Shown one piece after another: positions 26,592 to 53,255 of a stretch of 64,000 nucleotides of DNA. The notes under the pieces are model-generated. The model had not been told where the DNA came from. It did not search any database and saw only the letters and a program-made list of their open reading frames with translations. Within the stretch, counting starts at the first letter, position 1. Every line of letters starts with the position of its first letter. Both the position numbers and the translations under genes were made by a program. Source of the stretch: Magnolia sinica (taxonomy: Eukaryota > Streptophyta > Magnoliopsida > Magnoliales > Magnoliaceae); contig NC_080577.1 of assembly GCF_029962835.1 (NCBI RefSeq), forward strand, positions 4,526,001-4,590,000. Reading direction: 5' to 3'.

Positions 26592-29500
26592 TTATGCAAG
26601 ATGCAGTACCTGAGTCACGTATGGCGAGGTCTCACCAAGGAACTTCACAAACTCTTGCCTTTTCAAGTCAAAGCTGTTTTTTGCATGGTTTAATAATGTC
26701 TCTTCCCTTTTTATGTCTTCGTCTATTCTTTCCTTCTCCCATTTCATAAGCTTGATCCTTTCTGCAGTTTCACCAATGTCCCCTGGTAGATTTGAATTTC
26801 CTAAGGTAATTGGAAACCTCACTTCCACGTCTTTCCTGAAAGTGATTGCAATTCATCAAGAGCGAACCCAATTTAATATTACATGATGAAATTAATGAAA
26901 TAACATTATGATCACAAAAGAGCTTGAAGAAACCATGTTCATTGGCTTGCTGTCAGAAGTACATTCATGTGTACATAACAAAGACTTAAGCAGAAGAGCA
27001 TATCCTTGCTACCATTGGAAGTACTCTCAGATCCCCAATTGGCCAAATTTGGCAGTGAGTTCACTTCTTTTTTAACTCACTGGTCGTTTGGGCCGCACAG
27101 AAAATGACATAAAGCTGTATGGGTTTCTTTTCTCTCTTAATAAATATATCTTCCCATAGATCTTGTCTTTGTATAGGGGACTCATATCCATTGCCTTGAT
27201 GGATCTTATATTGGCTCACTTCTTTCTTAGTTTTATCAGCAATCTTGCATTGGTTTCTTTTTGCCCGCCTAATAAGTTACTAATAATTTTTTTTCAAACT
27301 AGTGGGTTATTAGTTTCTGCTTTTCAAAACCGAGAAACCAAATTCCACTCATTCCAACCATGAGTTGAAACAAGCGGAATTCCAGTAGTCAGAAATCTTT
27401 CTGCCACCCACGAGTCTCTTGATACTTCCAAATGTACCAATAGCTTTCCTACTACATACTTCAGCAGTTCAGCCGCATCTAGCATCAGAATGGCATTACT
27501 GTGATTCCTCATGACTGTAGGGTCATGGTATTCATCCCTACTCAACTAATGAGAACAAGGCACAGCCGACTTTAGTGTTGCCCTAGTATTGTATAGAGCC
27601 ATAAACCAAAGAAACCAATCTCACTTCATCTCAAAAAAGGGAAGGAAAAAAAGGCAGTTAAAGAAACCTACTGCTTACCAGTTGCCAAGGTCAAAGACAC
27701 CAGAACCTTTCATCATTCCGCCATCTAAAGAGATGGCACCATCACTTATACATGGGAGAGCAAGTTGCATATCAACTCTGGTTCTATATACTTGTAGGTG
27801 GGAGAAGAGATAATAAAACAGAGTCTCCCTAAGGCCATGCCCACTGGGAGTGAGACAAGATAGGTTAGTATTGTCCACATGGATCATATTAACAGCAAAC
27901 CCTAGAAAGCCGGAGGGACACTCCCCACTTGGTAATCTTGGTTTCAGTAAAGCGAGTTTCTTTTGTGGGTCCTCGGCTACAAACTTGCCAGCATAAGGTC
28001 TGTAAAAAAGAAACTATATTACAGTTATTTCAAGGAATACCAGCCCCAAAAAATGACAGTATGGACCAAATAAATCTATCTTGAAGATGTATCAATTTTA
28101 AAATTTGGGAATCTTAATGATATGCGTTAAATTCAGTAACATTTGGCAAATACTTTTCATTTCAGAAAAAGAAAGCTATGTAAGGTTCTTACATTAAATC
28201 TTCAAGACAAATGACCCGAAAACGGCCGTCCATGGGCCTTCCAATGGACTGGCCTAGCCCATGAAGTCCGACACTCTTATCAATCCGACCTGCTTGATCA
28301 TACAGTTCAAGAGCTTTAACACCTTCATACGTCTTGCATACAACTGCCAACATACTTTCCAATCCTAGATATTCAGAGAAAAACCTGGATATGGAAGTGT
28401 ATGGGGGCTAGGTAAGTTAAAAAACTAAGTAATAACCAAATACAATATATCAATGACAGCTACAAAGTTCAGTTACTGAGAAGGAATGGAATTCAGTTTT
28501 CAAGCTAACCTGCTATGATTATCATCATTTACTTTGCCGAGAGTAGCTACTATACCCAACACATCCTTCGTCAGCGGCAGATTTGATGCTTGGGCTCCAT
28601 GACGAGTTTTCAGCTGGCACAATATGCCAGCTGCTGTTTTCTCCTGCCGTAATATCTGTTCGATAGTGTTCTGCTCGGTGTGTACATGGTTAAGATTCTG
28701 ACTTCCAGTGTCAGCTACAGTAGATGAGTGGTACTTTCCAAGACTAACTGAGTGAACAAGTTGTGTTAGCAGTGGATAAAAGACATGACACATGCAGGTC
28801 ATATATCAAAGACAGCGGTTTGTTAAACATATACAGAGAGAAAACAAGCAGCTGGTAGCTGAGTCCTTACTCATGCCTCAGTGGTAGACTCACAAGAGTT
28901 TCAACACGAGGTCATGGGTTCTAGTGCCCACTGTGGTGAAATCCCACTGTGGTGTCAGTGCATGGGTGTGTGTGGGGTGTGAGTGCGTGTATTAAAAAAA
29001 GAAAAGAAAAAAGTAGCAGCATCTATAGCTGGGTCAGGGTTGCCCAAGCCCAAGCCAATAGAACAAGATCTTGGCCTGAGCTCAATGTGGGATCCTTAAC
29101 AACGAAATAGGAAATAGATATTAAATGAAGAAAAAGAAAGGCAATGAAGTAGTAACTAGTTATATCATGTTGCACTTGCAGAGATGCAATCCTAGGGTAG
29201 CATCTAAATGACTCAACTTTCCTAGTGCATTAGATCGAAAGCCACACAGACCTCAAAAACAGAACAGAATAACAGATAGCCTATGGACTCCATTTCTGAT
29301 TCTGCTTTTAGCTAGTTTCAACACCTTTCCTAATTCAAGATGGATCATAGACAAGACAATACAAGGACACCACACTAAAGAAAAGCAATAAGCTAACCTT
29401 GCATATCAAAAATGGATTCATCTAAGTTGTTTGTTTGAGTCTTCAGAAATTTCAGGTTGTCCTCATGATGCTTGATCTTTAATCCCAACTTTTGCAGATC

Positions 29501-29907
29501 GTCTTGAAGCATCTGCAAATTATTAAAGTTGATTATTGTTACGTGGGATTGAGACATTTTGAACTCAGGATCAGTTATTATCACATCAGGATGGTCTATT
29601 TACCATGGACTTTCATCAAAACGAATATTAGCAAACTTTAGCTCATGAAGTTCTAGAGATAACTAACATGGTATATAAAACATCCACAAAATGGAAATTT
29701 CTTGATGACATACATAAAAGAACAGATGCTCAAAGGCAACGCTGATCCCACAAACCTTGGAATGGCCCACAATTGTGTCTGCCTTATTAAGTGTGTCGTC
29801 CTGCATCTTGTTGGTTGCCTTTACACTGGCCACTTCAATGGGTAGGCTTTGGCTCATGATTTTGGAATAGATTACACCTTTATGTGAGAAAATGCCACCA
29901 TCGGAAG
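26592..29907 (-). CDS. DMS3: DMS3, SMC-hinge protein of RNA-directed DNA methylation
   Basis: Coding exons on the minus strand, in order: 29756-29907 (first in-frame ATG at 29857), 29398-29512, 28510-28747, 28193-28384, 27679-27999 and 26592-26835. From that ATG the product is 403 residues, close to Arabidopsis DMS3 (420). Order: a coiled coil ([20 protein letters not shown]), then an SMC-type hinge ([85 protein letters not shown]), then a C-terminal coiled coil ([15 protein letters not shown]). DMS3 joins DRD1 and RDM1 in the DDR complex, which lets RNA polymerase V act on chromatin. The frame is open upstream of the ATG to the acceptor after 29907, so an upstream coding exon is possible. 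The minus-strand leader from 31640-31820 is probably a non-coding first exon. Confidence 0.92.
28870..29014 (+). mobile_element. tRNA-derived SINE in a DMS3 intron
   Basis: The A-box-like text CTCAGTGGTAGACTCA is followed by TTTCAACACGAGGTC and the B-box-like GGGTTCTAGTGCCC. A GT-rich 3' part (GTGTGTGTGGGGTGTG) and an A-rich tail (28992-29013) follow. It is on the plus strand, opposite to DMS3, and in the same family as 25160-25268. Confidence 0.65.
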
Positions 29908-29913
29908 CTGTAG

Positions 29914-31640
29914 TACAAGAGAATTCAGCATGAGAACATGTATTTCACGCACACCTCAAGCAGACCTTGCCAACAGTTTATCTAAGATGCAGTCCTATTC
30001 TATCCTTTGTAATGAAAGGATGGTACGGACAGATACAAACTCAGATAACTCTCTGTACCATGATACAGACTTTTGTATATATTTTTTGAAAAGTATTATA
30101 CCAATATTTGTAGTGTATCAATAAATGAACTTATCATGATGCTTTCCTGACATCCCAACTTTGCTAATTTTGTATGTGCTTTTTTCATAGCTTCAAAATT
30201 CAGTGCATTGGTTTTTTGATTAGACACAAACCATGAAGAAATATACTGCCTGCAAGTGGATTAAAGATCAACCTTTACATGAATGGTCTCCTTTCTTCGC
30301 CTTCCTAGTGCAAACCCATGACGCTATTGTATCATTCATTTCAAGTACACCATTTAAACAACAAATTCCATTTTACCCCTCTTCAATCTCTAAGCGTTCA
30401 GTGGTCCTACCAAACATCATACATACGGGCCCCAACCAGATTGATCAAAATGGCCCACCAAGCTGTGTCAGCCTTCAATTGCCACTGCCCAAAACTAGCT
30501 TCGACCATCCAACAGAGAAATCTTTTCAGCAATTGAATGTGGACAATGGCCATTCTTTGCAACTTACACTAATCATTCCCAGAACACCCCACCTTAGAAA
30601 TCAAATATTCCATGTTCCTTCTCCTTCTCTCTCCTCATGCTAGATGCATACATACAGACAAATACAGGTGTAAATGCATGCATACATGCAAGAGGTGTGC
30701 TCCAGTGGGAAACAGTACCAATGTAAGCTTACAGAGGTAATGGGTAGAAATGAGGCCCGTGCTGTCTGTGTATCACATCCAACTTGTCCATCATATGTAT
30801 CCTCTCAGGTTACCCCCATAATCTGAAAATCATCTCAATCCCAAACTGTGGTGGGCCACAGTTTCGGGAACAAAATAGGAGGGGATGCTTACCCTTGATT
30901 TTCACCAGGGCTCACTTGAGTTGCAGAACAACCTGATTTTTGTCCTGACTCTTCATCCAGGGCAGACAAAGGGTCTGGACGGCCTGGATTCCCTACAAAC
31001 AACATGGTGGACCCCCATGCAAATCAAGAGCAGGTGTGTCCCCTGTGCTGTGGCCCACCTGAGTTTTCATCTGGGCTGATTTTTTGGGACCTAGGGGTAA
31101 CATGAGGCGATGCTTCTGATGGACGTGTCAAGCGTCCCGAATCACGTGGGTCCCACATCTGCCCAGTACACCAGAGCATGCGCCACTACACATTTACATG
31201 ATTACATGCCACGATTGATGGATAATCTACTCCATCAATTTCCTCCCAACTTGAATGCATGGGTTGATGAAAGCATAGATCAGAAGATTGGGCATGGCCC
31301 CGGCATCGCCGGATTTCGGCTCCACCTCAAGGCCCACTGACCCGGTGGTCGGTCCTCAACTCAAGGTCGACTGCATTAACGGTCTGGGATCAAACCCTCT
31401 CAGCTTCAACAGCTTTCACCGTTAGATCCAAACCACGATGCCAGGCCCGCTGTAGCATGTTTACGGCCATCTGTCGCAGGCTCGGGCATATCCGGACCGT
31501 TGATCATGACATAGGCAGTAACTAAAAATTCTCAGAGTATGCAATGGAAGATTCTAGAATAGAAATGCAACGCCTTTGAATTCCCCCTTTTTTTTCTTTA
31601 TCTTTTCACTTGTAGGAGAGGAAAAAGAGGTGCGAGTACA
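29914..31640. other. DMS3 5' intron (inferred), MITE material
   Basis: No coding exon is recognised. MITE-like blocks lie at about 30380-30640 and 30750-31120, with phrases such as GTGGGCCACAGTTTCGGG and GTGGCCCACCTGAGTTTTC. On the minus strand a plausible donor (CCGGTTCAG|GTTATG, boundary near 31643) would end a non-coding first exon. Confidence 0.45.
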
Positions 31641-31847
31641 TAACCTGAACCGGTGGAAGAGAGAATCGCAAGGCTCTGAAATGGTGGAGGTGTACAGAAC
31701 TAAAATGGTACTGCGGGCATGGAAACACTGAAGAGAAGGAAAAACGAGGAGTGACTGGCGATAACCTATCCCTCTTCGGATTTTTACCACCAACTTCTTT
31801 AGGAGTCCGCCCACGCTTTTCGAAGATGAATTACCAAGATCCCTTCT

Positions 31848-31856
31848 GTATTTATA
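31848..31856 (-). promoter_or_regulatory. Candidate TATA box of DMS3
   Basis: TATAAATAC on the minus strand lies about 2 kb before the first recognised DMS3 coding exon and about 200 bp before a plausible leader-exon donor. It is the best core-promoter candidate in the gap between GMI1 and DMS3. This is inferred from sequence only. Confidence 0.45.
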
Positions 31857-31929
31857 TTCCTCAGAACTCGGGAGCGCTAAAGCGGGACGCGGATTGGGTA
31901 CTAACCCGGCGGACCGAGCTCGGTACAGG

Positions 31930-32305
31930 CAGGTTCTCCAAGGGACCCACTGTGATGTATGAGAATTATCCACACCGTTCATCAAATTTTCTGTATTGTT
32001 TTAGGGAGTAAATCCAAAATTGAGAGATATTCAATGCTCAAGTGGACCACACCATAGGAAGTTATGCCTATCGTTGAAACCTCCTGGACCTACCGTGATG
32101 TTTATTTATCATCTAACGTATTCGTAAGGTTACATAGATCTGAACGAAAGAAAAACACAAATAACAACTTGATCCAGAACTTACGTAGGAAAAACGTTGG
32201 ATCTGCTTCGTTTTTGGACTTGCACCCTAAAATGATGATAGGGCAAAATGGATGAACATTGAATAAAACTCGTACAAGTACCATGTGGGCCCCGCAATTT
32301 TTAAC
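31930..32305. mobile_element. MITE of the GGGCCCACCATGATG family, in the DMS3 promoter
   Basis: CCAAGGGACCCACTGTGATG on the left and TACCATGTGGGCCCCGCA on the right are inverted counterparts. The usual internal phrases (TCAAGTGGACCACACCATAG, GTTGAAACCTCCTGG) lie between them. Confidence 0.6.
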
Positions 32306-32589
32306 TTCGCCGCTCTTAAAGAAGAATTGTGGGCATTTTATTCATTACCAAAAAGAACCGGCAATTTCAATTTGAAGGCGTTGCTTGGTAAAATTAGAAC
32401 TGCTGGGGACTTTGCAGTAAAAATCCCAACCTTTTTTTTTCATTTTCTCAGCGCGTCTCTCGTCTTGAAAATATTTGATCTTTTAAGGGCTAAAGTGGCA
32501 ACAAATATTTGAAGAGCAGTAATCGGAGAACTGATCACATACATGCAACAGCACCACAATTCCACCAACAAGGCACTTGTGTAGGATCA

Positions 32590-32712
32590 GTACCATGAAA
32601 ACAGTAGGGCCCACATGAAGATCTCCCTTACCTAAAATAAGTTTGACCCGGAACGGCCTCATTTTGTTCAACGTGATCTTCATGGTGGGGCCTACAGTTT
32701 TCACGGTACTCA
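32590..32712. repeat. Short foldback repeat
   Basis: ATGAAAACAGTAGGGCCCAC then ATGAAGATC on the left pairs with GATCTTCATGGTGGGGCC then TACAGTTTTCACGGT on the right. The loop is about 50 bp. It lies between GMI1 and DMS3. Confidence 0.65.
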
Positions 32713-33691
32713 TTTCGTACACAAGTGGCATTTTATCTGGAAAAGATGGTAAGCCATCACAAAGTTGTGGAACCTTTTCTGTATTTGATAGTTGCCTGAT
32801 TAAAGAGTTACATAATTCCCTGACAGTGTATGACGCTTGATAAGCGGGCATTCAGAAATTGTAGACGTGTCATGCATTAACTCAAGTTAAAGCTACTAAA
32901 TTGTGGAACCCATAGGTGCCGAGTCACAGCCCTAAAACTAGATTGGTTAAACAATCATAACCTCTGATTTGTGGATACACGTCTCTGCCTATCATCCATC
33001 AAACTCCGCCGGAGTATCAAAACTCTCCTCTAAATAGAGAAAAGAAAAATATAAAAAATCACATCAAGTAGTTCTATAGAACTCATTTATCTTCCTTAAG
33101 TTGAATGGAATTTTTTATGTGAAATTTTATACGCATTTGATGCGTCGAAGCATTACGTTTTTCTTGAACACCAAAACAAACCACATTTTGAGTGGTCTAA
33201 ATCGTTATTGGCAAGCTTATATTTATGATATTCCTTCACCATCCATCTCATGGTATGCAAATGAGTGGCTGTAGTCAGAATTACACAATTAAAACTTCTT
33301 ACCACAGAAATTGTTTCTGAAAACAAATTTTAATCAACTTCTACATTCCAGGTTGCAAAATGGCACCCTAGAATTCATGCATGTCAGATGACAACAATGA
33401 CAACAATGCCGAATGGTGCCAAGTTTACTGGGATGAAGATTTTCTCATTAATCCACAAAAATCGATTCAAATTCACATAGAATCAACACCCAAGGTAAAA
33501 GCATATATATTGCATATAAACATTTTTTTTTTTTAAAAAAGTATCCAAAAGGTGGCATGCATGTTGAGACTTCCTGTTTTCATTTTATAAAATCAGAATC
33601 CCATAATATATACAGAAATTATGCAACCACCACCAGATTCAAAAGCAACAGAACTGTACAAAACATACATATTTACGGCAAAATGCATTTC

Positions 33692-36600
33692 CTAGTTTTC
33701 AGCTATAAGTTGCTTTCTAGACTCCATAACCTCCTTTATGAAGGGTGCCTTCTCTTCCATAAATTTGCACAGCTGCTCTCTTCGCTTTCCAAATTTGTGG
33801 CGGGCTTTGGCAAGGGCGTTTGTCTCTTTCAATATTTCTGCACTTAGGGCTTCCATCTCAGCTTTCTTGTCAGTTATCTTCTTTACAACATCCAAGGTGT
33901 GCTGAGAGGACCGTAGAACTTCTGGCTCAACTGGAAATCTGATTTCTGGATCACTGAAACAGAAGGACAGTACCCAGAGTCAAAATGTCTCTGACATTAC
34001 CCATGGAGAAGTGGAAGAAAGAAAACAGAAACATGTCTACCAAAGCTCAAGTAATTAATTTACATTCATACTATCAAGGAATGAATGATCCAAGGGTATA
34101 GAACAACATAAACCAACTTAACATTTCTACTCATCAATCATCACCACCATCTGATTAAAATTAAGGCAGCAACTTGGGTTCTGGTCAACCTGAACAAAAC
34201 CTAAACCAACCCTAGTTCAGGTTGGGTTGTCAACATCAAATTGGATTGGGTTCGGGTTGATCAAATTCAGGTCGGGTTGGGTTAGTTTAGGGTTGAGTGC
34301 AGATGGTGGTGATGGGGCCTCACACCTCACTGCTGACTAATTCTCATCAGATGATGTTTGCATATGCCACCATAATCAGTGTCATGCACTATCCCCTCAC
34401 TAAGATAAAACGCACGCTACTTTAATTTTTCAATTAAGAAAAATGATAACATAAAAACATTGCATGGTACAACAAGGAATTTGACCTTTAAATTCAGAGA
34501 TTTGACATAAGATCTATATTAAAAAAGAGGAATTTATAGCTGAAATTCCTTATAGTACCATACAACAGTTGTATGTGATCATTCATGGAAAGGGCTTTCA
34601 TGTAGCTTATATGAAGAACAACATTTATTACAGCACAAATGCCTAGATAAGATGAAGTGGATACCAGTGGCTAGAATGCCTTATTTACTAAAATTGAAAA
34701 TTTCTAATTTCCTGATCGGGCATGTACTGAGCTCGAACATATTATTTCTATACTTCCTGACCCTAAAAAGTAAATGTTACTTGAAAGATGTGTCAAAAAT
34801 ATGAATCTAAAACTGTCAACCAGTTACAGCTCCTATGATCACTTTTCACATGTAAAAACATCACATGAATGCTAGAAGGTCATAGCCGACGACAAGATGA
34901 AATAATGGGAATCCCGCACCAGACGAAATAAAATACTGCCTATAGTTTGTCAACACTCCCAGCAAAAGTCAAGGACTATTTCTTGTGCTGAAGAGCTTGT
35001 CGGAACTTCAAAGACTGTCATGATGTGCTTCAAATGGTTTCCGTGAGAATATAAGAACCTATTTATTGTGTGAAGAAATGAATTGTAATCTCTCCCATGA
35101 GAACAATCCTCCAAATAAACAGCAGTTCATTCAATCTAAATGGACAATAGAATTTGATCCATGCTACTTCCATAACCTTTGAAACCAACCCACTTCAATT
35201 CCAAAAGCACCGGTTATTTCTCTCCTCCCATAAAGCCCAAATCCCAACCAACAAGACCAGTCTCCAAAGCATCTTTCGTTTCTTCCCAATCCCGCCCACA
35301 CCACCCTCATTAACTAAGACTGAATTAGCACCAAGCAATGGGAATGTTTGCTTCCGAGGAAAATCTAGCTAGACTCGGAAACTCTTGGCAGAGTATCCTC
35401 CCACCCAACCAAACGACCTCCCAAAACTGAATCCCATTCCAACCCCTAAAGAGAATCCAATCCCCTCCTTGAATTTGCTCCCCACCCTGAACCGTCTTCC
35501 ATAGCGTCGAGGCCCTGTAAAGAGAGATGTCTTTTGTCCACCACTTTTCCTTCTTGACCCAATACTTCTTCTTCTTCCTTTTTTATTTATTTATTGAAGG
35601 ATGACAATTTATTAATGGGCAGAAAAACCACAAAAGGAATCTAAAGAAAAGAACGCAGAAAAGACTAGAGCACAAGCCCAATCTAAGCCAGAAAAACTAC
35701 AACCACAAAGCTTGGCATTCACTGCAGCCCAACTGATAACCATAGATCTAGCTTTAAAGAAGACTCTCTTGGCATTCCTCAAGCCCTCTCTGAAACATCT
35801 ACTGTTCCTTTCACCCCAAATGGACCATAACCCGCAGGGAGAGAGCCTCCAAACCACACAACCCACTGCCCCAATGCCTCCTCCATGCCACTGGCCAAAG
35901 AACTACACAATCGAATTAGGCATAACCCAGAGTACCCCAAAAGAATAATAATAATAAAAAAAAAGGGAACCTATCTTCCTTCGCAAAAGGGCATTGCAAA
36001 AAAAAAGAAAAGAAGACGAAGAACTGACTCATTTCTGAAACATAGCAGGCAAGCGCTGACAAGGATTAAGCCCCTCTTCTGCAAATTATCTTCCGTCAAG
36101 GTCCTCTCCCAACTGGCCAACCAAGCAAAAGCTGCCACCATAGAAGGAGCCCCACAACACCATAGAAATGCAAAGTAACTCTCTCGGCCCTGACCATACT
36201 TCCTAACTATCACCGCTCTACATAGCCAACCCTCTTCCATACCAAAGCTCTATAACCGTTTTCCTATCAATGCTTCATTCATAGACTCCCAACTTCTTTA
36301 TACCTGCACCCTGCTTGGATACCTCCTCTCACGACAACAAACGGAAGCGGGAGGTTCGATAATGCTGCTTAGATGCCTAAAGCTTCTGGTCACTTCTAAA
36401 TCATCTCTAATTTCAGTGGTAAATAATAATAATAAATAGGGGAAGATATGCGGAGTTTTACCAGAAAGAACCAAGAATCTCACCTCTAAGAGTTTCTAAT
36501 CTCAAAAATTATTATTTTTTTATTCGACCGAGAAAAAACAAACCATCTCTAAATCATCCATACTTATGGCCTATGTTTACATAGCCTTGGTTGATATACC

Positions 36601-39600
36601 ACTTAATAAAATAAAAGAAGACAATACTTGAAACCCTTAGGAATGCATTGTGGTTCCACTAAAACCAAATTTACCCCTTCTTGTTCGACATGCAATATGC
36701 GGTGTTAGTGCTTATCAGATTTTTGGCTGACAATCAAGACTTAGTCCACTACAGGGGATACCAAAAAAATATCGATATCGCTAATAACTGGAAATGAGGG
36801 GAAACATTGGGGAAACATGGGGAAAACAGTGGAAATTTTCAGTGAAACTTTAGCAGATGCTAAAATACACATATTTGCAAATTTATGAATATGAAAATTT
36901 TAAAAAGAATGCATACATAATAAGTTTCCATTTAATGGAGGCCAAAAAGCATGTGGTGTCATCCAAACATTCATCAATATTTCAAAATATTGACAACACA
37001 CGATATTTCACCAAGAAATCGTTGCCAGTTGGAAAGGAAATGAAAGATTATGGTCTTGATATCACACATGTTGCGATAACGATAATATCACGATATAATC
37101 GATATTATTATTGATAAATTGAACATTGCATACAACCATGCACCCATATAAAAATTGAAATGGAAAAAATTTTTAATAAACAAAATTTTGGCGATATTGA
37201 TATGTAGGCGATGTTATCAAAATATCGTTGATACACTGGTGATACAAGCAACACCTGGAATTTATACAGTTGATATTAGTGTTAGATTGGCAATATCAAT
37301 ACATTAGCAATATAAGTGAGACCTAGAATTTACATAGTAAAAAATATTGGCGATACTTAGAGATACATCGCCGATACTTGGAATTTTTGATACTACCATT
37401 GTCATCAGTATCATTACTAGTGTTATCAGTATCGTCGAGCTGGAGATACAGATAATATCGGGGATATTTTGATAATGTCGGGGATACTTCGAACAATGAT
37501 GTCAACTGCCACTTAAATACTTCATCCACACACAAATATACTACCTTAGGGGCTGTATGATTTATACAAAGCCTCCTTCTTTCTTGTACGATTTGTGTAT
37601 AAACACTAACATCTTTATTCTAACAGACTGGTGAGTCCACAGTTGTTTACTCTCTCAGACATTTGATTGGATCTGTTGGTCCCGCAATCCAATCGTATGG
37701 TGAATCTTGGTCTGCATTCCATCAGCCAGCAGTGCAGTCCAATAGTGGATCCAGATTGTTGATCCAAATACTGTATTATATTATAATTTCAACACCTTGT
37801 GTATGGAGTTCAACTGGGAAACTAGCAACTGTTATCACATTCAATGAGATGATTGTGTGATTCATATGACACAGATCATACAAATTTTGAAGTCCTGTTA
37901 AGAAATATTTGTCAAACATATTTGGAAAACAGAATTCCTTGTCATGAAAATGACATTGCAAAAAAAAAAGAAAAAAAAGGAACCGCTTCGGATGTGCTTA
38001 CCAATTTCCTAGGACAACAAGGATGCCATTTCCTCTCTTAATTCCACCGTCCAAAGAGATGGCCCCAGACTTTATACAAGCATTGGCCTCTTGCATGTCT
38101 GCCCTTGTTTCATAAACTTGGACCTCACCAAAAAGAAGATAGAATAAGGTTTCCCGAAGCCCATAGCCAGCAGCAGTCGTAATATGCATATTCATGTTTA
38201 GATTGATCATATTAACTGCATAACCTAGGAATCCATGTGGTGTCCTCCCAGATGGTAACAGTGGAACTGGCAAGGCCAGTTTCCTTTGGCGATCATTGCC
38301 TGTAATGTCTCCACTGTACGGCCTAGCATGGAAAAGTAGTCACCTTTAGAGTACAAAGTTTATAGAAATAAGGAAATGCAACAAATGCTGACTACAATAG
38401 TTAAACTGGCATCAATCATTCATGGCAGAAAGTACTGGTTTTTCTTGACAGAAAGCACACTACCTGGGGAATGAAATGTTTGTGCAAACAGTGGCATGTG
38501 CATGTGAGAGAGCATGGTGTCGGTGTGTGCATGAGCACAAGTGAGTGTACCCGTTTATGGAATTTAAATGCTTTCTAAACTACCTTATGTCTTCCAGACA
38601 TATAACACGAAACCGGCCATTTATAGTTTTCTCCGAGGCGGATGCTGCTTCATGAAGTGAACAGCTCCAGTCTATTTCTCCTTTCTCAACATACTTTTCT
38701 AAAGCACTTACAGCTTCATTGGACTTGCAGACTACCGCAAGCATATAATCTTCACCCAAATATTCTGCAAATATCCTGCAAAAAGTCATACTCAAATGTA
38801 AATCACACACCGGATCAAAATTATTAGTTGTTTCGTGAATATTGAGTATAATGTGCAGTAGTGAAATGGCTGCCAGAAGGTTTACCTACTAAGTCTATAG
38901 CTGTTTACTGTTCCAAGAAGAGCGACAACGCCGATTACATCTTGCACATACTGTTTTTCTGGTTCTCGAATCTGAATGGTCTTTAATAAATTACAGAATA
39001 CAGCAACAACGTCATCACCTTTGCCTTCAATCCTTTTCACTACTAGGTCTTTTGCATCCATCACATGGTCAAATGGACTGAAGGATAGAGGCTCCATCAA
39101 AACTGGCAAGTTCGTCACAATTTCATGTTCACTTTGAGTCAGTTTGCTAATTGATTTCCATCTTAATCATGTTGCTAATGATATCCTAAAGAGAATTATA
39201 AAAATGACCCCTGATTTAATAAAATGTGAAAACAATGATCCACTACATAATACTCATCATTGTTTGGAAGTACTAGCTTCCAAAAGGAAATAAAACCTTG
39301 AATGTTTCATCAAATGGATGAAACCTGCTCACCAGTTGCCAATAACAAGACTGTGTCTTACCATAATTAGGAAGCATTTTGTGTTTCACCATATTATAAT
39401 GAAAAAAAGTGTCTTTATAACTTCACTACATTATAACAAAAAGAGTGTCTTCATAACATCATTAGCGGTATAAATCAGGAACACCTTTGTAATTCTCCAT
39501 AACTTGATATCCATCACCAAAGAAGGGAAAAATATTAATGAAAGAAAATCTCTTAATGAGTTTCAGAACCTTCCAAATCATATATTTCTCGTGCAATTGC

Positions 39601-39813
39601 TGTCTTCCGATCATTGAGCAGTTTCAGCTTGTTTTCAATGCTTCCAATCTGTACCCCAACTTTAGCAAGACCTCTATCAAGTTTCTGCAGAAAAGAACAC
39701 ACGGAAGATTGAGCATAGTTTGAGTGCAGAAAGAACAAAGGATGATGGAACAAGCTACACTTCGTATGGTTGGTTCCTATATGCAAAAATTCATATTTTA
39801 AATAAAATTGTCT

Positions 39814-39849
<36 letters not shown>

Positions 39850-42800
39850 CTAAATTTCAAAGGATAGACCAATGGAATCCTAACATCATATATGCCCACC
39901 AAGTTACCAATCCATCACTTCACATTGGTTTATATATGTATATATATGTATATATACACATATATATACATATATAAACCAATGTGAAGTGATGGATTGG
40001 TAACTTGGTGGGCATATATGATGTTAGGATTCCATTGGTCTATCCTTTGAAATTTAGTGAGGTGAAACCAAATTACGATTTACAATAAACACACTTTTGG
40101 AATTGCTTCCAAGATTTGAGAGCACATTATTGAATCATTGATGAACTTTAGTAAATAAAGTACCCCAGTTCAGTTATTATTCGTGGAACCATGTCTAAGC
40201 TAATGACAGCCCTGAAAGCTATGATAAAGATGTTCAAGACCATAGCAACCAAGACAAATCTACTATCTAGAAATTAAATGCTTTATAATTTTTATTTTAT
40301 TATTATTATTATTATTTTAAAGAAAACAACGTGGAGTTGACAATTAGTGGAAGGAAGGATTCTTTTTTTTTTCTTTTTTCTTTTTTTTCTTTTTTTTTTA
40401 AATTTTAAATTTTAATGACATCAAGGTGTCCCCGCCACATTTTGAGGTGAGACTATTCCTTGCAGATGCATGCAATCACTAGAAAACCACGTCCATCAGG
40501 TAATCCCGGGAAGGGGAATCGAACTCGTGTCTGTGAGGAGCACACCCACGATGCTTGCCGTTCACCCAAACCCGGTGCGGGTTTTGGCCATTTTAACTAT
40601 CAAGCTTTCTAAGATATAATGTAACATTCATTGGAAAGGGCAAAGGCTAATTCACAGCCTCTTCACCTAATGCATCCATTGTATATTTGGCTCATCTCAA
40701 ACAGCACGCGTGAAACGCTTAGCCTACCAGGATTTATTCATGAAGCTGGGTAAGATATCAGATGTTTTGTTCATGAAGCTGGGGTATTAGGAAAATGCTT
40801 AATAAATTCATTGCCGTTCACTTTCAGAGACAGAAATCCCATTCTAAATTAGTACCTAGCATTTCAAGCAAAAGTTTAGCCTACCTTCCCATCTTCAAAG
40901 AGAGATGCCACCAAGGCATGTGCATGCTTAGGATCAAAGACATATGTATCTTGGAGAAGCAACATCCTTCCATCGGAACATTGAGAATGGACTATGGGAG
41001 TGCTTGGCTCAGTTAGGGTGGCCAGCTCCAATTTCGGGGCCCGAATAACTAAAATCTGCATAACATGGAATTGCAAGTTAGCAATCAGAAGAAGAAAAAA
41101 AAAAAAGAAGAAAAAAAAGAGAAAAGAATCCTTGCCACATAGATGACAGAAAATAAACTGATTCTAGAAGTAGCTTGCAACCTTAACACTAGTTCGAAGC
41201 ACTGGGTGATGAGAATGGGAAGCCACAAACTGGAAGTCCCCTTCTTCTCGAGGAACAGGAATTGAAGGCACGGTGCACTTCCCACGTCGGAAAGTATACC
41301 GAATTGTGCTGTCGATTTGCGATGATTCTGATGTTAATGTAAGTGCATGAAATTGATCATGTGTTGGTTCATCATGTATCCCTTCATCAACTCTGCCCTC
41401 GGAATCAAAAACTTCAAAGACAATATTTTCAAGCTGGGAAGCAGCAATGCAATGGCTAGGTACCTGAAATGAAACAAATGCCAGAAAGGAATGGACTGTA
41501 GATTACTAAAACGTATCCATGTTATTCCATAGAGAGAACCCCACACTAATGAATGACAGGAAATAAGAGGGAAACCAATTACCAACCTGAGACACCATTC
41601 TCAACTCTCTTTTAGCAATTTGAAACTCTTCCTTCAATAATATTTTCCCACCAAATGAAACAGAAAGATGCACTGTATCGGAGTACACAATTAGAGGCAT
41701 TGAACTGGATAACCAAAGGATATAATTTACTAACATAAGAGAATGCATGTGCCTCTAAACGATATGACTGTTTGCAAAGGGCCATTTTTCCGTGGCATTG
41801 CAACAGGGCCAGATGTACCCAGCCTCTAAAGCATAGGCATATGACTCTCCATGTTCGACTATGATGCCTATGTGACAGAATAAGGCTAGATTTGTAATCG
41901 ACTAACATAAAAGAATGCATGCCTTTTCTTGTATACTCCTCTTAAGGATAAAATTGTTTGAATAAGACTATATTTCTGTTACATTGCAACAGGGCCAGAA
42001 GTACATGATGAGGACATCCAAGCACCATATCGAGTATATCTAATGGGGACATCACGCGCACACACACGCCCCCCCTACGCACGTACGCAAGGAGGAGGAG
42101 GGCCCTACTGTCGATCCGGATCAATGACGATGTCCAAAGAGGGCCTCCTAATTAAAAGACTGAGTATTGATTCGTTGGAATGGGTCCGATAGTCAAGTCA
42201 AGCCCATCATGGGTTCTCATGATCATGTCCCACTAGTCTGATTAATCTCATATTTTAGGTCTTGCTTATTAATGTTATTTAGAATATCATGGACGGTTTA
42301 GATTGCTTTGATTAGTTGTTATTTTTTATTACTTCGTCGCTAAGTAATAGGTTGTGCACATGATGCGAGTTTTGAGGTATAGGGTTTTACTATAAATAGG
42401 CACCCCTTGTAGTCTTTCTAATTCATTGAAGTTTAATGAAAATTCATTCATTTTTTCTACTCCTCTGAGTTCTTGAGTTGTGGAAATTCAATTGGGTGTG
42501 AAGCCCTCCCTTCATCGAAGGGCCGACTACCGTGGTGCGAAGCCACATCTATCCCGATTCGCCCCCATCCTCTACCATCCCTATTTTTCAACTCCTATAA
42601 TCATCTACACTTCGAATTCGTTCTCTATCGCCACAATTCTTCTCCCTACAGCAGAATTTCAAAATCTGACCCTACAAGAGGGCTGAAACTTCGACGGAGC
42701 ACCACGCCCAGACCACACGTCGGATCGTCCTAAAAATTGGGGATTTTGGAGTCCTCCCTCCTCCCCTAGCCGACCAGACCCTAAAAGTCGGTTCTCGGAA

Positions 42801-48800: not shown

Positions 48801-50618
48801 TGAAGATCTCGACTTTATTCAAGGACTAGAAGCTTCACCCATTGGCCCTTCTTCCGACCCTTACCCGTGGCATTTACCAAACCCATATTCTCACCCTTTG
48901 CCCCCTTTAAGATCGATATCGGCTAAAAGAGAATAGATAGGGTATTCTAGATGAGCAAGTGGTTTCCACCAGGCACAAAGGTTTTCAGAACTATCTCCTC
49001 AAGTGGAAGAACATGTCAAAGTCAATACATGGATCACGAAGAGCGAGCTTCGGAGACTTTTCCCCCATCTTCTTGAGTATTACCACAACTTTATATCGCC
49101 AGAGGCGATCTCTTCTCAGCCGGAGGAGTTGATGAGGACATCCAAGCACCATATCGAGTATATTAGAGGAGAGTAGCTGTGACCCACGCTCCAATTTCTC
49201 TACGGCTAGATCATTACGTGGGGCCCGACCTCAGATTGTAGGTGCGTGGAAGACCACACATGCATATTTGGTGCATCGTTGAAGACCCTATATTGGAGAG
49301 ATGCATGTGGGCTGCTCATTGGGAGGATGGAGATACGTTTTACATGTGGAGACATTTTTCTCCTTGCTATTTCCCATGATTGGAATTGTGTGATGCCGTG
49401 GTATGCAGCCATTAATCTTAATCCAGATAAGTTTTTCTCCCCCTATTTCTATTTCTTCAAAATTTCCCTTCTATTTTCCACTTTTCTCAACCCAACACAA
49501 TATTCATTCCCAACTATCATCTGTACCAAACCCAATCTAGACCACATCAAAACCTAACCTAAACCAAAACCTTCTCTTTCCCCCAACATGTGAACAATGC
49601 CGTGAACAATGATTTCTCACTTACATTCCCATTTTCTCCAATTTTCCTAACTTTTAAACCCTAAGTTCCTAAATCCCCAATTCCAAAACCGTAAATCTCC
49701 AATTCGAAACCCTTAACCTAATTCCCAATTAATCGAAACCTAAAATACTTGACCCTTGATGGACGTATGTGAATCCCCTGAATGTAGATCAATCCCTGTG
49801 CTATAAATGGGAGTCACATGAGGTACCATACAACATAATTGGAATTAGGTCTTAAATCTAAACATTGCTTACTTGAGTACTTTTTATATCTATGGTAGAT
49901 TATATATTTTTTGCATTTTCTCATTGATATGATAATCCATTGATTAATCTCATGACATCATTTTAGCCTAGTCCAGCGTCCTGCATCAGTACAACCACCC
50001 TGCCCCATCTAGCATGGACCTATGACTCTGCATGTTGGACTATGATGCCTATGTAATGTGCCAAGTCTGCAGCTAGACAAAGGACATGTATTATTGCCTT
50101 ACAAAAGCACTTGATGAACCTATTCATGCTGCTGAAAACCTATCGCAAGTCAGCAAAGAAAATGGGGAAGGAGATACGATTGTATTTCCTGATTTAGGCA
50201 ACGATACAAGACCTGTTATAACAATATATAGAAACATATAGAGGACGTGGTGATGAAAAAATAATCTTGACATGTGATTGGGGACTCCAATGTACATGTC
50301 TCCTAGTAAGTTGGCTTCCTTGTAATTTGTGATGAAGCTACATAATAAGTAGAGATTGAATCAAGAGTTCAGAAGAAAAGAGCATACCACTGGTACCGTA
50401 GCCGCCAGTGACTTTTAGAAGCCCACTAAGGTTAACACATCCATGATCATCCACCTACACCACAAGAAGACCTTGCTGAGATAGTGTATAGAAAATGATA
50501 CAGTACCATGGGCGGAAAATAATCAATCCACACTAGATAAAGTATGTTCATGAAATATCCATGTGGTAGTAGAGTAAAAAAAAATTATAATTTTGAACTA
50601 GTGTTGTAATAATGCAAA

Positions 50619-50649
<31 letters not shown>

Positions 50650-53255
50650 GAAACAGAAGAAACCAAATAAACAAAAAAACTAGGAAGTGCAATTTTGTAG
50701 GCCATATGTTTGGGAGTTTTTTGTGGTATTACCATCTGTGGTGGGGCCCATCAGATCAATGGCGAGGATTACCAATCCATGGCTCCACATCTATGTGATC
50801 CTTCTATCAAAAATCTATGCTTTTATTGAGGCAAAAGATCCTGGGGCATTATCCTATTGGCTACTTTAAAAGCTAAAGAGGCCAATCCTTCTTCCATCTC
50901 AAGAACCATAGTTATAAAAGAGGCCAATCTTTTTGGCAAGCATACAATAACCTTAATCAAAACATAGGGGAACACTGATTTCTCATACGGATCCATGCAA
51001 CTATAAAACTGTTTTTGAAAAAAAAATATACCTTATGCATCCAACCATCACGCCCTTGAAAACAAAATCCCTCCACCTCTACGCGTACTTCTACCCCTTT
51101 CGCAACATGATTGTCATAAGCATCAAATAGCTGGAGCAAGTGCAAGAGAAATAAAACAGGTTGGACACCATACTTCAACTGGTATAAATGTTGCAGAAGT
51201 TCCAACCAAGAAACAAAACAAGGGACAAAAAGAAGGATACCACATGAAGTGATATCGAGCTTTAAATGATAATCGATCTACAAAATTAATAATTCTCCAC
51301 AATCTATGGTAGGTTTATCCATGGTGTTCATGCTAATCAGGGAACACTTGGAAGGTATTTTCCATTTCAAAACAGGTATTTTCTGTTTTTATGAGTCAAT
51401 TCAAGTGGTGGGGCAAAACTGACCATTGGATTGTGCAGATTTTTGGCACATCACATTGTCATGGTGGGCTTCAGCTGATGCATGGGTTGGATGGAATACA
51501 CAACGCACTGGAACCAACACCATATAAAACACTGTAAAATCAGTTGACACTTGACACACTTGATGCATGGGTCAGCTTGGAAGTCAACACCACAATGAGC
51601 CGATTTTCAACCATCACCACTACAATCGTGGTGGTAACACTAGTATGTGATCATTTTCCCTACACATGGAGATAGTGAGAGGTGTATGTGTCACACATGA
51701 AACCCTTCCTTTTTTTCATGAACTTTGAATCACATGACCTTTTTTTAAGAGTATGCGAGAAACTTTAAATTATCTGTTTCATCCACGAATTGAAATATTA
51801 CAACAGACTATTTGGATCCTCATAAAAATCCCTTGACATGATAAGAAAATGATCAATATACCCTTGACAATCTTAATAATATTAGATGATTTCTCTTATG
51901 CACTCTAGTAAAAGGAATTACTAGGACAATGTCTTATTGATTTAAGTTTACTGCTTAGCATTTCTCAACATTGGAAATAGCTGCAATTTGAACCAGACTC
52001 ATTGGTAAGATAATTATATCTGCTCTCTGGGAGACTGGATTACACAAATTAGCTAAAAAACACTTCTATTCAAGGTTTACTTTTTATGCTGATTTCAGTT
52101 CATCAATGCAGGGGCTAGACTCGTTTATAGTTCACCACCATTTCAAAAATGGTGCTGATTCATCCACCATAGGTATGGCATAATTGTACAGCAGTCCAGG
52201 TAAGCCGATTGTGGATGGAGCATAATCCAAAAACTGCACTAAGCAGGTGATAGTGACCATCTGATTTTGCCCACTATAATTGGACCACACATGATTTTTA
52301 AATTAATCATCAAATCATATAGCCAGGATTTGGATGGTCTGGATAGCCACACAGGTCTGACACAAATAAGGTGGATGAGAACTACAACCGGAGTCTCGTC
52401 CCTCCCAGAGGGGGTCATTCACTGTCATTAACTCTCCAAGCAACATCAATATGCTGTCCTATGATCAGTTCAGTGTCAGGTCCAGTTAGATTATCCAGGC
52501 TAGATTTGCAACAATGCTAACATAAAATAAGACAGGAAGGATGTTACCAGAAATGTAAATGCAACTGAACTTAAGAGAAAAACTTCTAAATGTGAGAATG
52601 ATAACCATTCATAAATAATTAGCTACAAGGTTACCTCTAATATAAGCTTGTCGATCACATGACCAGGGATCAAAGAGTTCTCTAATTTTGGGGACCGTGT
52701 CATCTTAAGATGATGAGGATGTCCAGGATTGACTGATATACAAAGATCCCGTAAACCTAATGAGAAATCGCAAAAACGATTTTCCTAAAAATAATATAAT
52801 GACTACAATTTAGTGATGGGAAAGGCTGATAGTTTTGGGTACCCGGTGCAGGTAAAAGAAAATAATCTACCTTGACAAGGAACAGATACTGGGAATAACT
52901 CATCCCCTGAGCAAATCTCCAAGGTTGCTTTATATTGTGGCCGAATCAGGTCTAAGTTACTACTTTCAATCAGCATATCCTACATAATGAGAAATCCAGA
53001 AGACCATTGATGACATAGAATAACAAAAAAGTATACGTAACTCACTGACAGATGTATAGAGGGTATATAAATCATACTGTAACTTGCAGAGTCATTTTAT
53101 TTATGGAAAGATCCACCATCATTTCTTTGACACAAACAAGTGTGCTTCCTCCAGCCATTATTTTGACTTTCACTTCAGGAGTACTCTCGAATGGCATCCG
53201 GTTGTAATACTTATCGTAGCATGCAATAGACAGATGCGGAAAAGATGAACCAACC
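33692..53255 (-). CDS. GMI1: GMI1-like SMC-hinge protein, 3' portion (thirteen exons)
   Basis: Minus-strand exons: 53078-53255, 52871-52979, 52635-52756, 51032-51130, 50388-50454, 41587-41672, 41182-41463, 40885-41055, 39570-39684, 38886-39102, 38584-38775, 38002-38322 and 33692-33953. All splice in frame with GT-AG and give 739 residues ending at TAG. The 5' portion, including any GHKL ATPase domain, is not seen; Arabidopsis GMI1 is about 1,600 residues. First come beta-rich SMCHD1-like repeats ([41 protein letters not shown]). Next is a coiled coil ([20 protein letters not shown]). The hinge follows ([62 protein letters not shown]), then a C-terminal coiled coil. GMI1 acts in DNA-damage response and homologous recombination. 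One intron holds the 8-kb gypsy fossil. Confidence 0.92.
35150..35560 (-). mobile_element. LINE fragment, internally shortened
   Basis: The minus strand reads [20 protein letters not shown], then FWEVVWLGG and [11 protein letters not shown], which is the plant L1-type RT C-terminal region. It then passes directly to [13 protein letters not shown], the extreme C-terminus, so the zinc-binding segment between them is missing. Confidence 0.6.
35575..36260 (-). mobile_element. LINE fragment, 5'-truncated
   Basis: On the minus strand a zinc-binding RT segment ([20 protein letters not shown] then [13 protein letters not shown]; 35971-36240) is followed by [20 protein letters not shown] (35612-35866). 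An A-rich 3' end shows as T-rich plus-strand text at 35575-35600. The 5' truncation is usual for LINE copies. Confidence 0.65.
36740..37520. repeat. CGATATC/GATACT-rich repeat
   Basis: About 780 bp is rich in words such as ATATCGATATCGC, CGATATTGATATG, CGCCGATACTTGG and CGGGGATACTTCG in both orientations. It looks like a non-coding transposon remnant or internally repetitive element; the class is not determined. Confidence 0.5.
39817..39848. repeat. (TA)n microsatellite
   Basis: A TA dinucleotide run lies immediately left of the 210-bp palindrome. Confidence 0.85.
39849..40058. repeat. Near-perfect 210-bp palindrome in a GMI1 intron
   Basis: Position 39849 pairs with 40058, and pairing continues to the centre near 39953/39954. 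I saw one mismatch, in the AT-rich centre. The arms contain ACTAAATTTCAAAGGATAGA, CCAATGGAATCC and CCAACTTGGTGGGC-type text and its inverse. There is no spacer. Such a hairpin could be a foldback element, a template-switch duplication or an assembly artefact. Confidence 0.9.
40362..40582 (-). mobile_element. tRNA-derived SINE in a GMI1 intron
   Basis: On the minus strand: A-box-like GGTGAACGGCAAGCATCG, then B box GAGTTCGATTCCCC, a body of about 130 bp, and an A/G-rich tail that shows as T/C-rich plus-strand text at 40362-40400. It is in the same orientation as GMI1 and of a different family from the 25- and 28-kb SINEs. Confidence 0.65.
41730..42000. repeat. Imperfect tandem duplication in a GMI1 intron
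   Basis: ACTAACATAAGAGAATGCATG at 41730 recurs as ACTAACATAAAAGAATGCATG at about 41901. The text GCATTGCAACAGGGCCAGA and then CTATGACTCTGCATGTT..ACTATGATGCCTATGT follow in both copies. The second copy is split by the gypsy fossil and resumes at 49989-50057. Confidence 0.75.
42041..43259 (+). mobile_element. Solo LTR of the element-B family, nested in fossil A
   Basis: This 1,219-bp LTR is flanked by exact 5-bp target duplications ATATC (42036-42040 and 43260-43264). It begins TAATGGGGACATC and ends CCTGCATCA. Along its length it matches the 1.2-kb LTRs of fossil B (CTACGCACGTACGC, AGGGCCTCCTA, CCCGATAGTCAAG, CTATAAATAGGCACCCC). No internal region remains, the usual result of LTR-LTR recombination. 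Because it interrupts the left LTR of fossil A, it is younger than A. Confidence 0.9.
49130..49988 (+). repeat. Right LTR of fossil A
   Basis: It starts TGATGAGGACATCC and ends CCTGCATCA. It is 859 bp, and is uninterrupted, unlike the left LTR. Confidence 0.88.
51400..52440. mobile_element. MITE material in a GMI1 intron
   Basis: Two blocks lie here, about 51410-51660 and 52080-52430. The second shares order and wording with the block near 9880-10100 (CACCATTT..AAATGGTG, GGCATA.TTGTA, GATGG.AGCATAA.CC.AAAA.TGCACT), so both are copies of one family. Confidence 0.55.

What the first reader, a model, noticed from the sequence alone, without database searches (positions are those of the whole stretch)
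26592..53255. DMS3 and GMI1 are tandem neighbours with matching exon structure
Seen: from the coiled-coil exon to the end, both genes have five matched exons on the same strand. Three pairs have identical lengths: 115/115, 192/192 and 321/321 nt. The others are 238/217 and 244/262. All shared introns have the same phase (after 1, 2, 2 and 2 bases of a codon), and hinge motifs align one to one ([36 protein letters not shown]). Known: DMS3 and GMI1 both carry SMC hinge domains, and in Arabidopsis they are on different chromosomes. Inference: DMS3, a core RdDM factor, began as a partial tandem duplicate of the 3' end of a GMI1/SMCHD1-like gene that lost the ATPase half, and this genome keeps the original arrangement.
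Basis: partly seen in the sequence, partly recalled or inferred. Interest (0 to 1): 0.88.

Follow-up and report, generated by a model that had tools for sequence, protein, structure and literature searches.

The report
Ancient tandem pair behind DMS3
In a magnolia, DMS3, a gene needed to silence jumping genes by RNA-directed DNA methylation, sits directly behind a larger DNA-repair gene, GMI1, and matches its tail end intron for intron; the same pairing turns up in several other flowering plants, so DMS3 very probably began as a tandem copy of GMI1's tail that does without the ATPase part.

Summary
The window is Magnolia sinica. On the minus strand a complete DMS3 gene (29857-25859) lies 3.8 kb downstream of the 3' half of GMI1, whose GHKL-ATPase half lies beyond the window on the same contig. 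The pairing is not peculiar to Magnolia: 5 of 16 species with readable locus tags have the two genes within three tags, and seven gene models from elsewhere carry a GMI1-type then a DMS3-type hinge in one protein. DMS3 and GMI1 form two fully supported groups, each with magnoliids, monocots and eudicots; a Magnolia-only or magnoliid-only duplication is rejected (AU p 8e-5, 7e-6). Best reading: DMS3 arose before the mesangiosperm radiation as a tandem copy of GMI1's 3' end. Angiosperm stem or earlier is open: no ANA-grade, gymnosperm, fern or moss sequence was identified, and the SMCHD1 outgroup was too distant. The hinge kinship was known; eight literature searches turned up no report of the linkage.

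The parts
29756..29857 (-). DMS3 coding exon 1 (ATG at 29857; phase 0 at its end); not usefully alignable to GMI1
   Evidence: spliced protein equals P0001; 3 of 34 aligned residues identical to GMI1
29398..29512 (-). DMS3 exon 2, N-terminal coiled coil, 115 nt, phase 1 at its end
   Evidence: pairs with GMI1 39684-39570
28510..28747 (-). DMS3 exon 3, 238 nt, phase 2 at its end
   Evidence: pairs with GMI1 39102-38886
28193..28384 (-). DMS3 exon 4, hinge first part, 192 nt, phase 2 at its end
   Evidence: pairs with GMI1 38775-38584; 35 of 64 residues identical
27679..27999 (-). DMS3 exon 5, hinge second part, 321 nt, phase 2 at its end
   Evidence: pairs with GMI1 38322-38002; 61 of 106 residues identical
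26610..26835 (-). DMS3 exon 6, C-terminal coiled coil, 226 nt (not 244), phase 0 at its end
25859..25885 (-).
29858..33691 (.). interval of 3834 bp between the GMI1 stop codon and the DMS3 start codon
   Evidence: coordinates; P0121 finds no GMI1 exon here
33692..33953 (-). GMI1 last exon, C-terminal coiled coil and stop, 262 nt
   Evidence: equals the end of P0121
38002..38322 (-). GMI1 hinge exon, 321 nt
38584..38775 (-). GMI1 hinge exon, 192 nt
38886..39102 (-). GMI1 exon, 217 nt
39570..39684 (-). GMI1 coiled-coil exon, 115 nt; preceded by a phase-0 intron as in DMS3
40885..41055 (-). GMI1 exon, 171 nt
41182..41463 (-). GMI1 exon, 282 nt
41587..41672 (-). GMI1 exon, 86 nt
50388..50454 (-). 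GMI1 exon, 67 nt; followed by an 8715-nt intron that holds a degraded retroelement
51032..51130 (-). GMI1 exon, 99 nt
52635..52732 (-). GMI1 exon, 98 nt
52871..52979 (-). GMI1 exon, 109 nt
53078..53255 (-). first GMI1 exon inside the window (first whole codon is residue 878 of P0121); the 5' half continues beyond position 64000

Best explanation
DMS3 and GMI1 are an ancient head-to-tail tandem pair. Before magnoliids, monocots and eudicots separated, the 3' end of a GMI1 gene (GHKL ATPase, S5-like domain, coiled coil, SMC hinge, coiled coil) was duplicated just downstream of itself. The copy kept the coiled coil-hinge-coiled coil unit with five of its introns, gained its own start exon and lost or never had the ATPase half. 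It became DMS3, a hinge dimer that in Arabidopsis holds RDM1 and DRD1 and helps bring Pol V to its targets, with ATPase activity proposed to come in trans from MORC6; GMI1 stayed a long ATPase protein tied to DNA repair. Shown here: homology, shared introns, orientation, recurrence of the linkage in several angiosperm orders, two deep groups. Inferred: direction of the change, partial rather than full duplication, date. From the literature: function of DMS3 and GMI1, not tested in Magnolia.
For: Five of five introns of the common part shared at exact position and phase. GMI1 complete on the same contig and strand, with HATPase_c_3 (39.1 bits, cut-off 25) and a sub-threshold SMCHD1_S5 match (22.1 bits, cut-off 27); DMS3 has no Pfam family at E 0.01. 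Locus tags within three in 5 of 16 species with readable tags for both genes (read). Seven of 287 proteins hold a GMI1-type hinge followed by a DMS3-type hinge: Fragaria, Neltuma, Centaurea, Chenopodium, tomato, Buddleja and P0131 (species cut off in the listing; groups with Solanaceae). Both genes on one contig in 19 of 35 species, or 11 of 28 other species when only entries with a readable genus on both sides are used (binomial p 0.0015 if 15% is assumed by chance, 0.015 if 20%). DMS3 and GMI1 groups each 100/100 and 100 in the 288-row tree; AU tests reject Magnolia-only (p 8.4e-5) and magnoliid-only (p 7.1e-6) duplication.
Against: The two genes are unlinked in Arabidopsis. By the contig count they are on different contigs in 16 of 35 species, Xanthoceras among them although its tags are consecutive; by tags they are not close in 11 of 16. 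Protea and Liquidambar share a contig but the tags are 584 and 1355 apart. Magnolia's second DMS3 (C3) has no GMI1 exon in 58 kb upstream or 14 kb downstream. Monocot support is weak (Phoenix and Musa: same contig only; Acorus: different contigs). No sequence outside mesangiosperms was identified; SMCHD1 could not root the tree. [quoted passage not shown]
Confidence: 0.82

Rival explanations
1. The duplication is much older (land-plant or seed-plant ancestor) and possibly dispersed; the two genes were later brought side by side by rearrangement or simply stayed linked, and gymnosperms lost or still hold DMS3.
For: The stem between the groups is long (0.75 changes per site against mean crown depths of 0.34 and 0.67), which under even rates puts the split at about 1.7 times the crown age. 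Pine 'DMS3' loci are listed.
Against: Same strand and order with GMI1 first in all seven two-hinge models is what tandem duplication gives directly. PMC4607528 (abstract and passages seen) could identify DMS3 with confidence only in angiosperms; its gymnosperm candidates could not be told from GMI1. Faster change after duplication would lengthen the stem.
Confidence: 0.25
2. A full-length GMI1 was duplicated in tandem and the second copy later lost its 5' half, rather than being a partial copy from birth.
For: Nothing here separates the two; DMS3 exon 1 is unlike GMI1 (3 of 34 residues) and could be either new or a decayed remnant.
Against: No relic GMI1 exon is found in the 3.8 kb upstream of DMS3, but relics that old would have decayed.
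Confidence: 0.3
3. DMS3 is the older, ATPase-free form and GMI1 arose by fusing a DMS3-like hinge to a GHKL ATPase gene.
For: The angiosperm tree is unrooted, so topology alone does not exclude it.
Against: Animal SMCHD1 has the same ATPase-plus-hinge layout (PMC5651269, passages seen), and PF22899 SMCHD1_S5 is precomputed for eight of the listed plant GMI1 proteins, so the long form predates plants unless built twice.
Confidence: 0.05
4. A recent tandem duplication in the Magnolia lineage.
For: Adjacency alone.
Against: Rejected by AU tests and by close linkage in Aristolochia and several eudicots.
Confidence: 0.005

Closest known systems
Arabidopsis DMS3 (At3G49250; PDB 6ois, 6oit)
   Same: Window DMS3 matches it over residues 11-393 at E 7.8e-123 (query with a five-residue wrong tail); same coiled coil-hinge-coiled coil layout; the glycine of the LG motif after the hinge strand, which I equate with At G339, is kept
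   Different: In Arabidopsis the gene is unlinked to GMI1
Arabidopsis GMI1 (At5G24280)
   Same: 36% identical to the window's GMI1 part over 97% of it (P0230); GHKL ATPase at the N end, hinge at the C end
   Different: In Magnolia the gene spans about 85 kb with retroelements in introns and has DMS3 directly downstream
Animal SMCHD1 (PDB 6n64)
   Same: GHKL ATPase and C-terminal hinge layout (literature); sub-threshold SMCHD1 S5 match in P0121
   Different: Hinge sequence too far for a tree; hhalign probability only 4 and 9% with plant hinge profiles (pairwise E 0.01 and 0.0035)
Tandem partial gene duplication with domain loss, as a general way of making new genes (recalled)
   Same: Adjacent, same strand, shared introns, 5' part missing in one copy
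   Different: Here the linkage recurs in magnoliids, rosids, asterids and Caryophyllales

Membership tests
DMS3 | SMC hinge flanked by two short coiled coils, about 400 aa | tested here: met
   window DMS3 aligned to 6ois; profile match E 2.2e-152; 406 aa
DMS3 | no ATPase domain | tested here: met
   no Pfam family at E 0.01
DMS3 | dimer-interface glycine (At G339, PMC6718625 passages) | tested here: met
   G321 at 95% or more in both families; equating it with At G339 rests on alignment and recalled numbering
DMS3 | binds RDM1 and DRD1, needed for Pol V occupancy | not testable with these tools
   experimental
GMI1 | GHKL-type ATPase at the N end | tested here: met
   HATPase_c_3 at 147-267 of P0121, encoded outside the window on the same contig
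GMI1 | SMC hinge at the C end | tested here: met
   groups with GMI1 including Arabidopsis P0230, support 100/100
GMI1 | role in somatic recombination and break repair | not testable with these tools
   experimental
SMCHD1-type proteins | S5 domain of SMCHD1 type | tested here: inconclusive
   22.1 bits against a cut-off of 27 in P0121; precomputed PF22899 in eight other listed plant GMI1 proteins
SMCHD1-type proteins | hinge of SMCHD1 type | tested here: inconclusive
   hhalign probability 4.0 and 9.2%; tree branch 9.4; a plant profile did not find 6n64 among solved structures at E 10
tandem duplicate pair | homologous, adjacent, same strand, shared intron positions | tested here: met
tandem duplicate pair | linkage ancestral to angiosperms | tested here: inconclusive
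   found in magnoliids and core eudicots, weak in monocots, ANA grade not sampled

The most novel reading that the evidence does not exclude
DMS3, and with it the DDR complex that brings Pol V to its targets, was born on the angiosperm stem when the tail of a SMCHD1-like repair gene was copied in tandem, and the pair has stayed together because the genes are still transcribed jointly. In some lineages (Solanum, legumes, Asteraceae, Chenopodium) read-through would even make one protein with a GHKL ATPase and two hinges, rejoining in cis the ATPase that Arabidopsis DMS3 is thought to borrow from MORC6.
Probability: 0.12. Interest if true: 0.85.

Novelty: new member of a known kind. Interest (0 to 1): 0.6.

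Why it matters
Where DMS3 came from bears on how angiosperms acquired their full RNA-directed DNA methylation machinery, since PMC4607528 (abstract) names DMS3 among six proteins restricted to angiosperms. A tandem pair with shared introns gives a concrete, datable origin, ties a silencing factor to a DNA-repair ATPase, and supplies a synteny marker for telling true DMS3 from GMI1 fragments in gymnosperms, where that paper could not do so by sequence. Seven annotated two-hinge models also warn that public gene models around this locus may be fused, or may reflect real read-through.

Tried and rejected
SMCHD1 as an outgroup: too distant, rooted inside DMS3 on a branch of 9.4 changes per site; profile comparison inconclusive. 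Non-angiosperm sequences: three protein searches listed 120 of 694, 120 of 150 and 120 of 221 hits; among the names I could read none is of a non-angiosperm, but many entries have no name or a cut-off one and the rest of the hits were not listed. In the part of the 288-row tree that was printed no nameless row stands at the base of either group. A profile search of solved structures found Arabidopsis DMS3 and otherwise only weak matches, E 0.038 or worse. A GMI1 structure model (P0188, 22 rows) had mean pLDDT 68.6 and block means of 31-80 over the hinge; I did no fold search with it. Pfam on five raw window ORFs: nothing. NMNAT near the Magnolia pair: no tblastn match at E 1 in 160 kb of C5 or 80 kb of C3. 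Read-through as the proven cause of the two-hinge models: the linker sequences differ between lineages, so they could equally be annotation joins. Gene order between the DMS3 copies on C5 and C3: 82 open frames of C5 had a match in C3; apart from those over DMS3 and GMI1 exons they looked to me like transposon-type repeats and I did not pursue them. Literature: eight searches. Nine papers were opened, all as passages found by term, PMC6624907 also as section 5; none was read whole. None of what I saw mentions DMS3-GMI1 linkage or shared introns; only two papers of that library hold both names. The original DMS3 and GMI1 papers (Kanno 2008, Boehmdorfer 2011) were not seen.

Limits of the counts. 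The contig table was transcribed by hand; the contig printed is the longest one of a 90% cluster. For Phoenix, Macadamia, Ziziphus, Mangifera, Malania and Humulus the printed GMI1 name was cut off and the species was recognised by the matching contig length, so these can only count as linked; Musa was likewise recognised for the linked entry. One search repeats the test without the six, with Musa as unlinked and without Magnolia; there some names show the genus or part of the species only (Diospyros, Argentina, Telopea, Rosa, Corylus). The 15 and 20% chance levels are my assumption. Unlisted DMS3 copies and different assemblies of one species may hide linkage in the 'different' group. In one search P0005 and P0219 were themselves among the sequences from which the hinge profiles were built; the other five were not, or were left out. 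In one search the 'magnoliid' set of eleven rows includes the nameless P0122, placed there because it groups with Magnolia.

Full report
What is there. A DMS3 protein recorded for Magnolia sinica (P0001) matches the window's DMS3 and lies on a contig of 115,679,843 bases; the window is bases 4,526,001-4,590,000 of contig C5 of its genome, which has that same length. On the minus strand GMI1 comes first and DMS3 follows. I rebuilt both genes from splice sites. DMS3 has seven coding exons, 29857-29756, 29512-29398, 28747-28510, 28384-28193, 27999-27679, 26835-26610 and 25885-25859; the spliced product equals P0001 over all 406 residues. The rest of P0121 was found by tblastn, in order and nearly without gaps, at C5:4593753-4644400, so GMI1 spans about 85 kb and its ATPase half lies outside the window. 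Between the GMI1 stop and the DMS3 start lie 3834 bp.

Checking the finding. The exon lengths 115/115, 238/217, 192/192 and 321/321 and the phases 1, 2, 2, 2 are right. The phase-0 intron before the coiled-coil exon is also shared. On an alignment guided by 15 relatives, all five introns of the common part coincide exactly. Identity is 35 of 64 and 61 of 106 residues in the two hinge exons, 11 of 38 and 15 of 72 in the two exons before them, 19 of 75 in the C-terminal coil, 3 of 34 in DMS3 exon 1 and 0 of 8 in its last exon.

Is the linkage older than Magnolia? No plant genome other than the window's could be opened, so I used locus tags and contig lengths printed with the protein hits. Sixteen species have readable tags for both genes. 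In five the tags are consecutive or three apart: Aristolochia fimbriata (H6P81_014368 and 014369), Reevesia (G0152300 and G0152200), Xanthoceras (ACOSP7_031352 and 031351), Juglans (F2P56_035352 and 035355) and Bertholletia (NMG60_11020146 and 11020149). In eleven they are not: Protea and Liquidambar (same contig, far apart), Lonicera, Acorus, Papaver californicum, P. bracteatum, Hevea, Anisodus, Hibiscus sabdariffa, Pterospermum and Aquilegia. On contig lengths, 19 of 35 species put both genes on one contig; that count is biased because some species could be recognised only through the match. With those removed it is 11 of 28, still above an assumed chance level of 15% (p 0.0015) and more weakly above 20% (p 0.015). 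Of the 19, Macadamia (contig of 548 kb) and Nelumbo (4.2 Mb) have the shortest shared contigs.

Further evidence comes from gene models. Of 287 proteins scored with separate GMI1 and DMS3 hinge profiles, ten had more than one hinge stretch; three of these (P0007, P0070, P0284) are doubled or split hinges of one type. The other seven carry a GMI1-type hinge and then a DMS3-type hinge: P0005 Fragaria, P0130 Neltuma, P0131, P0152 Centaurea, P0207 Chenopodium, P0219 tomato and P0241 Buddleja. The order is GMI1 first in all seven. The linkers differ, and in Buddleja a cytidylyltransferase-like (NMNAT-type) domain lies between. They suggest that annotation pipelines met the two genes side by side on one strand; they do not prove fused transcripts.

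Phylogeny. In a 288-row hinge tree (FastTree, which warned of long branches), 123 DMS3 and 165 GMI1 rows separate cleanly (support 100). In a careful 44-row tree the split has 100/100, and each side holds magnoliids, monocots and eudicots. Holding the Magnolia DMS3 and GMI1 together costs 108.9 log-likelihood units (AU p 8.4e-5), and holding the eleven magnoliid rows together (ten by name or by DNA, plus the nameless P0122) costs 144.8 (p 7.1e-6). The duplication therefore predates these lineages. SMCHD1 could not root the tree. The stem is 0.75 changes per site against mean crown depths of 0.34 (DMS3) and 0.67 (GMI1), ratio 0.74; under even rates the split is about 1.7 times as old as the sampled crown, which does not decide between the angiosperm stem and an older date.

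Direction. P0121 has a GHKL ATPase (39.1 bits) and a sub-threshold SMCHD1 S5 match (22.1 bits, cut-off 27); P0001 has no Pfam family at E 0.01. Since animal SMCHD1 has the same ATPase-plus-hinge layout (PMC5651269, passages), loss in DMS3 is the simpler course. This is inference.

How it works. The DDR cryo-EM paper (PMC6718625, passages) shows DMS3 as a hinge dimer with short coiled-coil arms bound to RDM1 and to a DRD1 peptide; G339 lies at the dimer interface and its mutation loses de novo methylation. The matching glycine is kept in 95% or more of both families (the numbering match rests partly on recall). Thirty-two positions are the same residue at 95% or more in both families, and only three are nearly fixed differently (90% in DMS3, 80% in GMI1: DMS3 G196, L215 and S282 against A, I and G). 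So the hinge core looks conserved, and I infer that the change of role lies in loops, coils and the loss of the ATPase half. The 2017 review reports the proposal that MORC6 supplies the missing ATPase to DMS3.

Second DMS3 copy. P0002 lies at C3:125987678-125995778 with a similar exon plan by tblastn; no GMI1 exon was found in 58 kb upstream or 14 kb downstream. In the tree P0001 pairs with one Asimina copy and P0002 with another, so that duplication is at least as old as the Magnolia-Asimina split.

What is known. The kinship of DMS3 and GMI1 through the hinge, and the missing ATPase, are in print (PMC5651269). PMC4607528 (abstract and passages) calls DMS3 angiosperm-specific and reports that gymnosperm sequences could not be told from GMI1; PMC10082083 (passage) lists three pine loci as DMS3. 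PMC6624907 (passages and section 5) studied collinearity of DMS3 but is not among the papers that hold both names. I found no statement of DMS3-GMI1 linkage or shared introns in searches; subscription papers were not available.

Verdict. A real and well-supported observation with one wrong exon, and an interpretation mostly borne out within mesangiosperms but untested beyond them.

Noticed in passing
window 41673-50387: An 8.7-kb GMI1 intron holds what looks by its frames like a degraded Ty3/Gypsy element on the + strand, with two direct-repeat pairs 5.8-5.9 kb apart at 85-86% identity and a 182-nt tandem duplication at 47822-48185.
   Followed up: partly
window about 55300-62300: A second, better preserved element of the same look on the + strand (long gag/pol-like frames at 56705-61578) lies in another GMI1 intron, between the exon at 53255 and the next one beyond the window.
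   Followed up: no
G000 C3:125987678-125995778 (L014, L015): A second Magnolia DMS3 gene (P0002, 76% identical to the window's DMS3) without GMI1 beside it; Asimina also has two copies that pair with the two Magnolia copies.
   Followed up: partly
P0131, P0219 (Solanaceae-like, tomato): Two-hinge GMI1-DMS3 models; the P0131 cluster has 29 member sequences, and a separate unfused Solanaceae DMS3 (P0101, Anisodus) also exists.
   Followed up: partly
P0241 (Buddleja), P0212: A cytidylyltransferase-like (NMNAT-type) domain is joined to GMI1 models, in Buddleja between GMI1 and DMS3; perhaps a neighbouring gene that accounts for tag gaps of three in other species.
   Followed up: partly
P0037 (Aristolochia fimbriata DMS3): The DMS3 model next to GMI1 begins with a double-stranded RNA binding domain (PF00035, 53.6 bits): a fusion or an annotation join.
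   Followed up: no
P0230, P0220, P0239, P0237, P0224 (GMI1 of crucifers and grasses): These GMI1 hinges sit on long stems and join each other at the base of GMI1 (flagged as long branches meeting); Arabidopsis and Sorghum also join, probably long-branch attraction.
   Followed up: no
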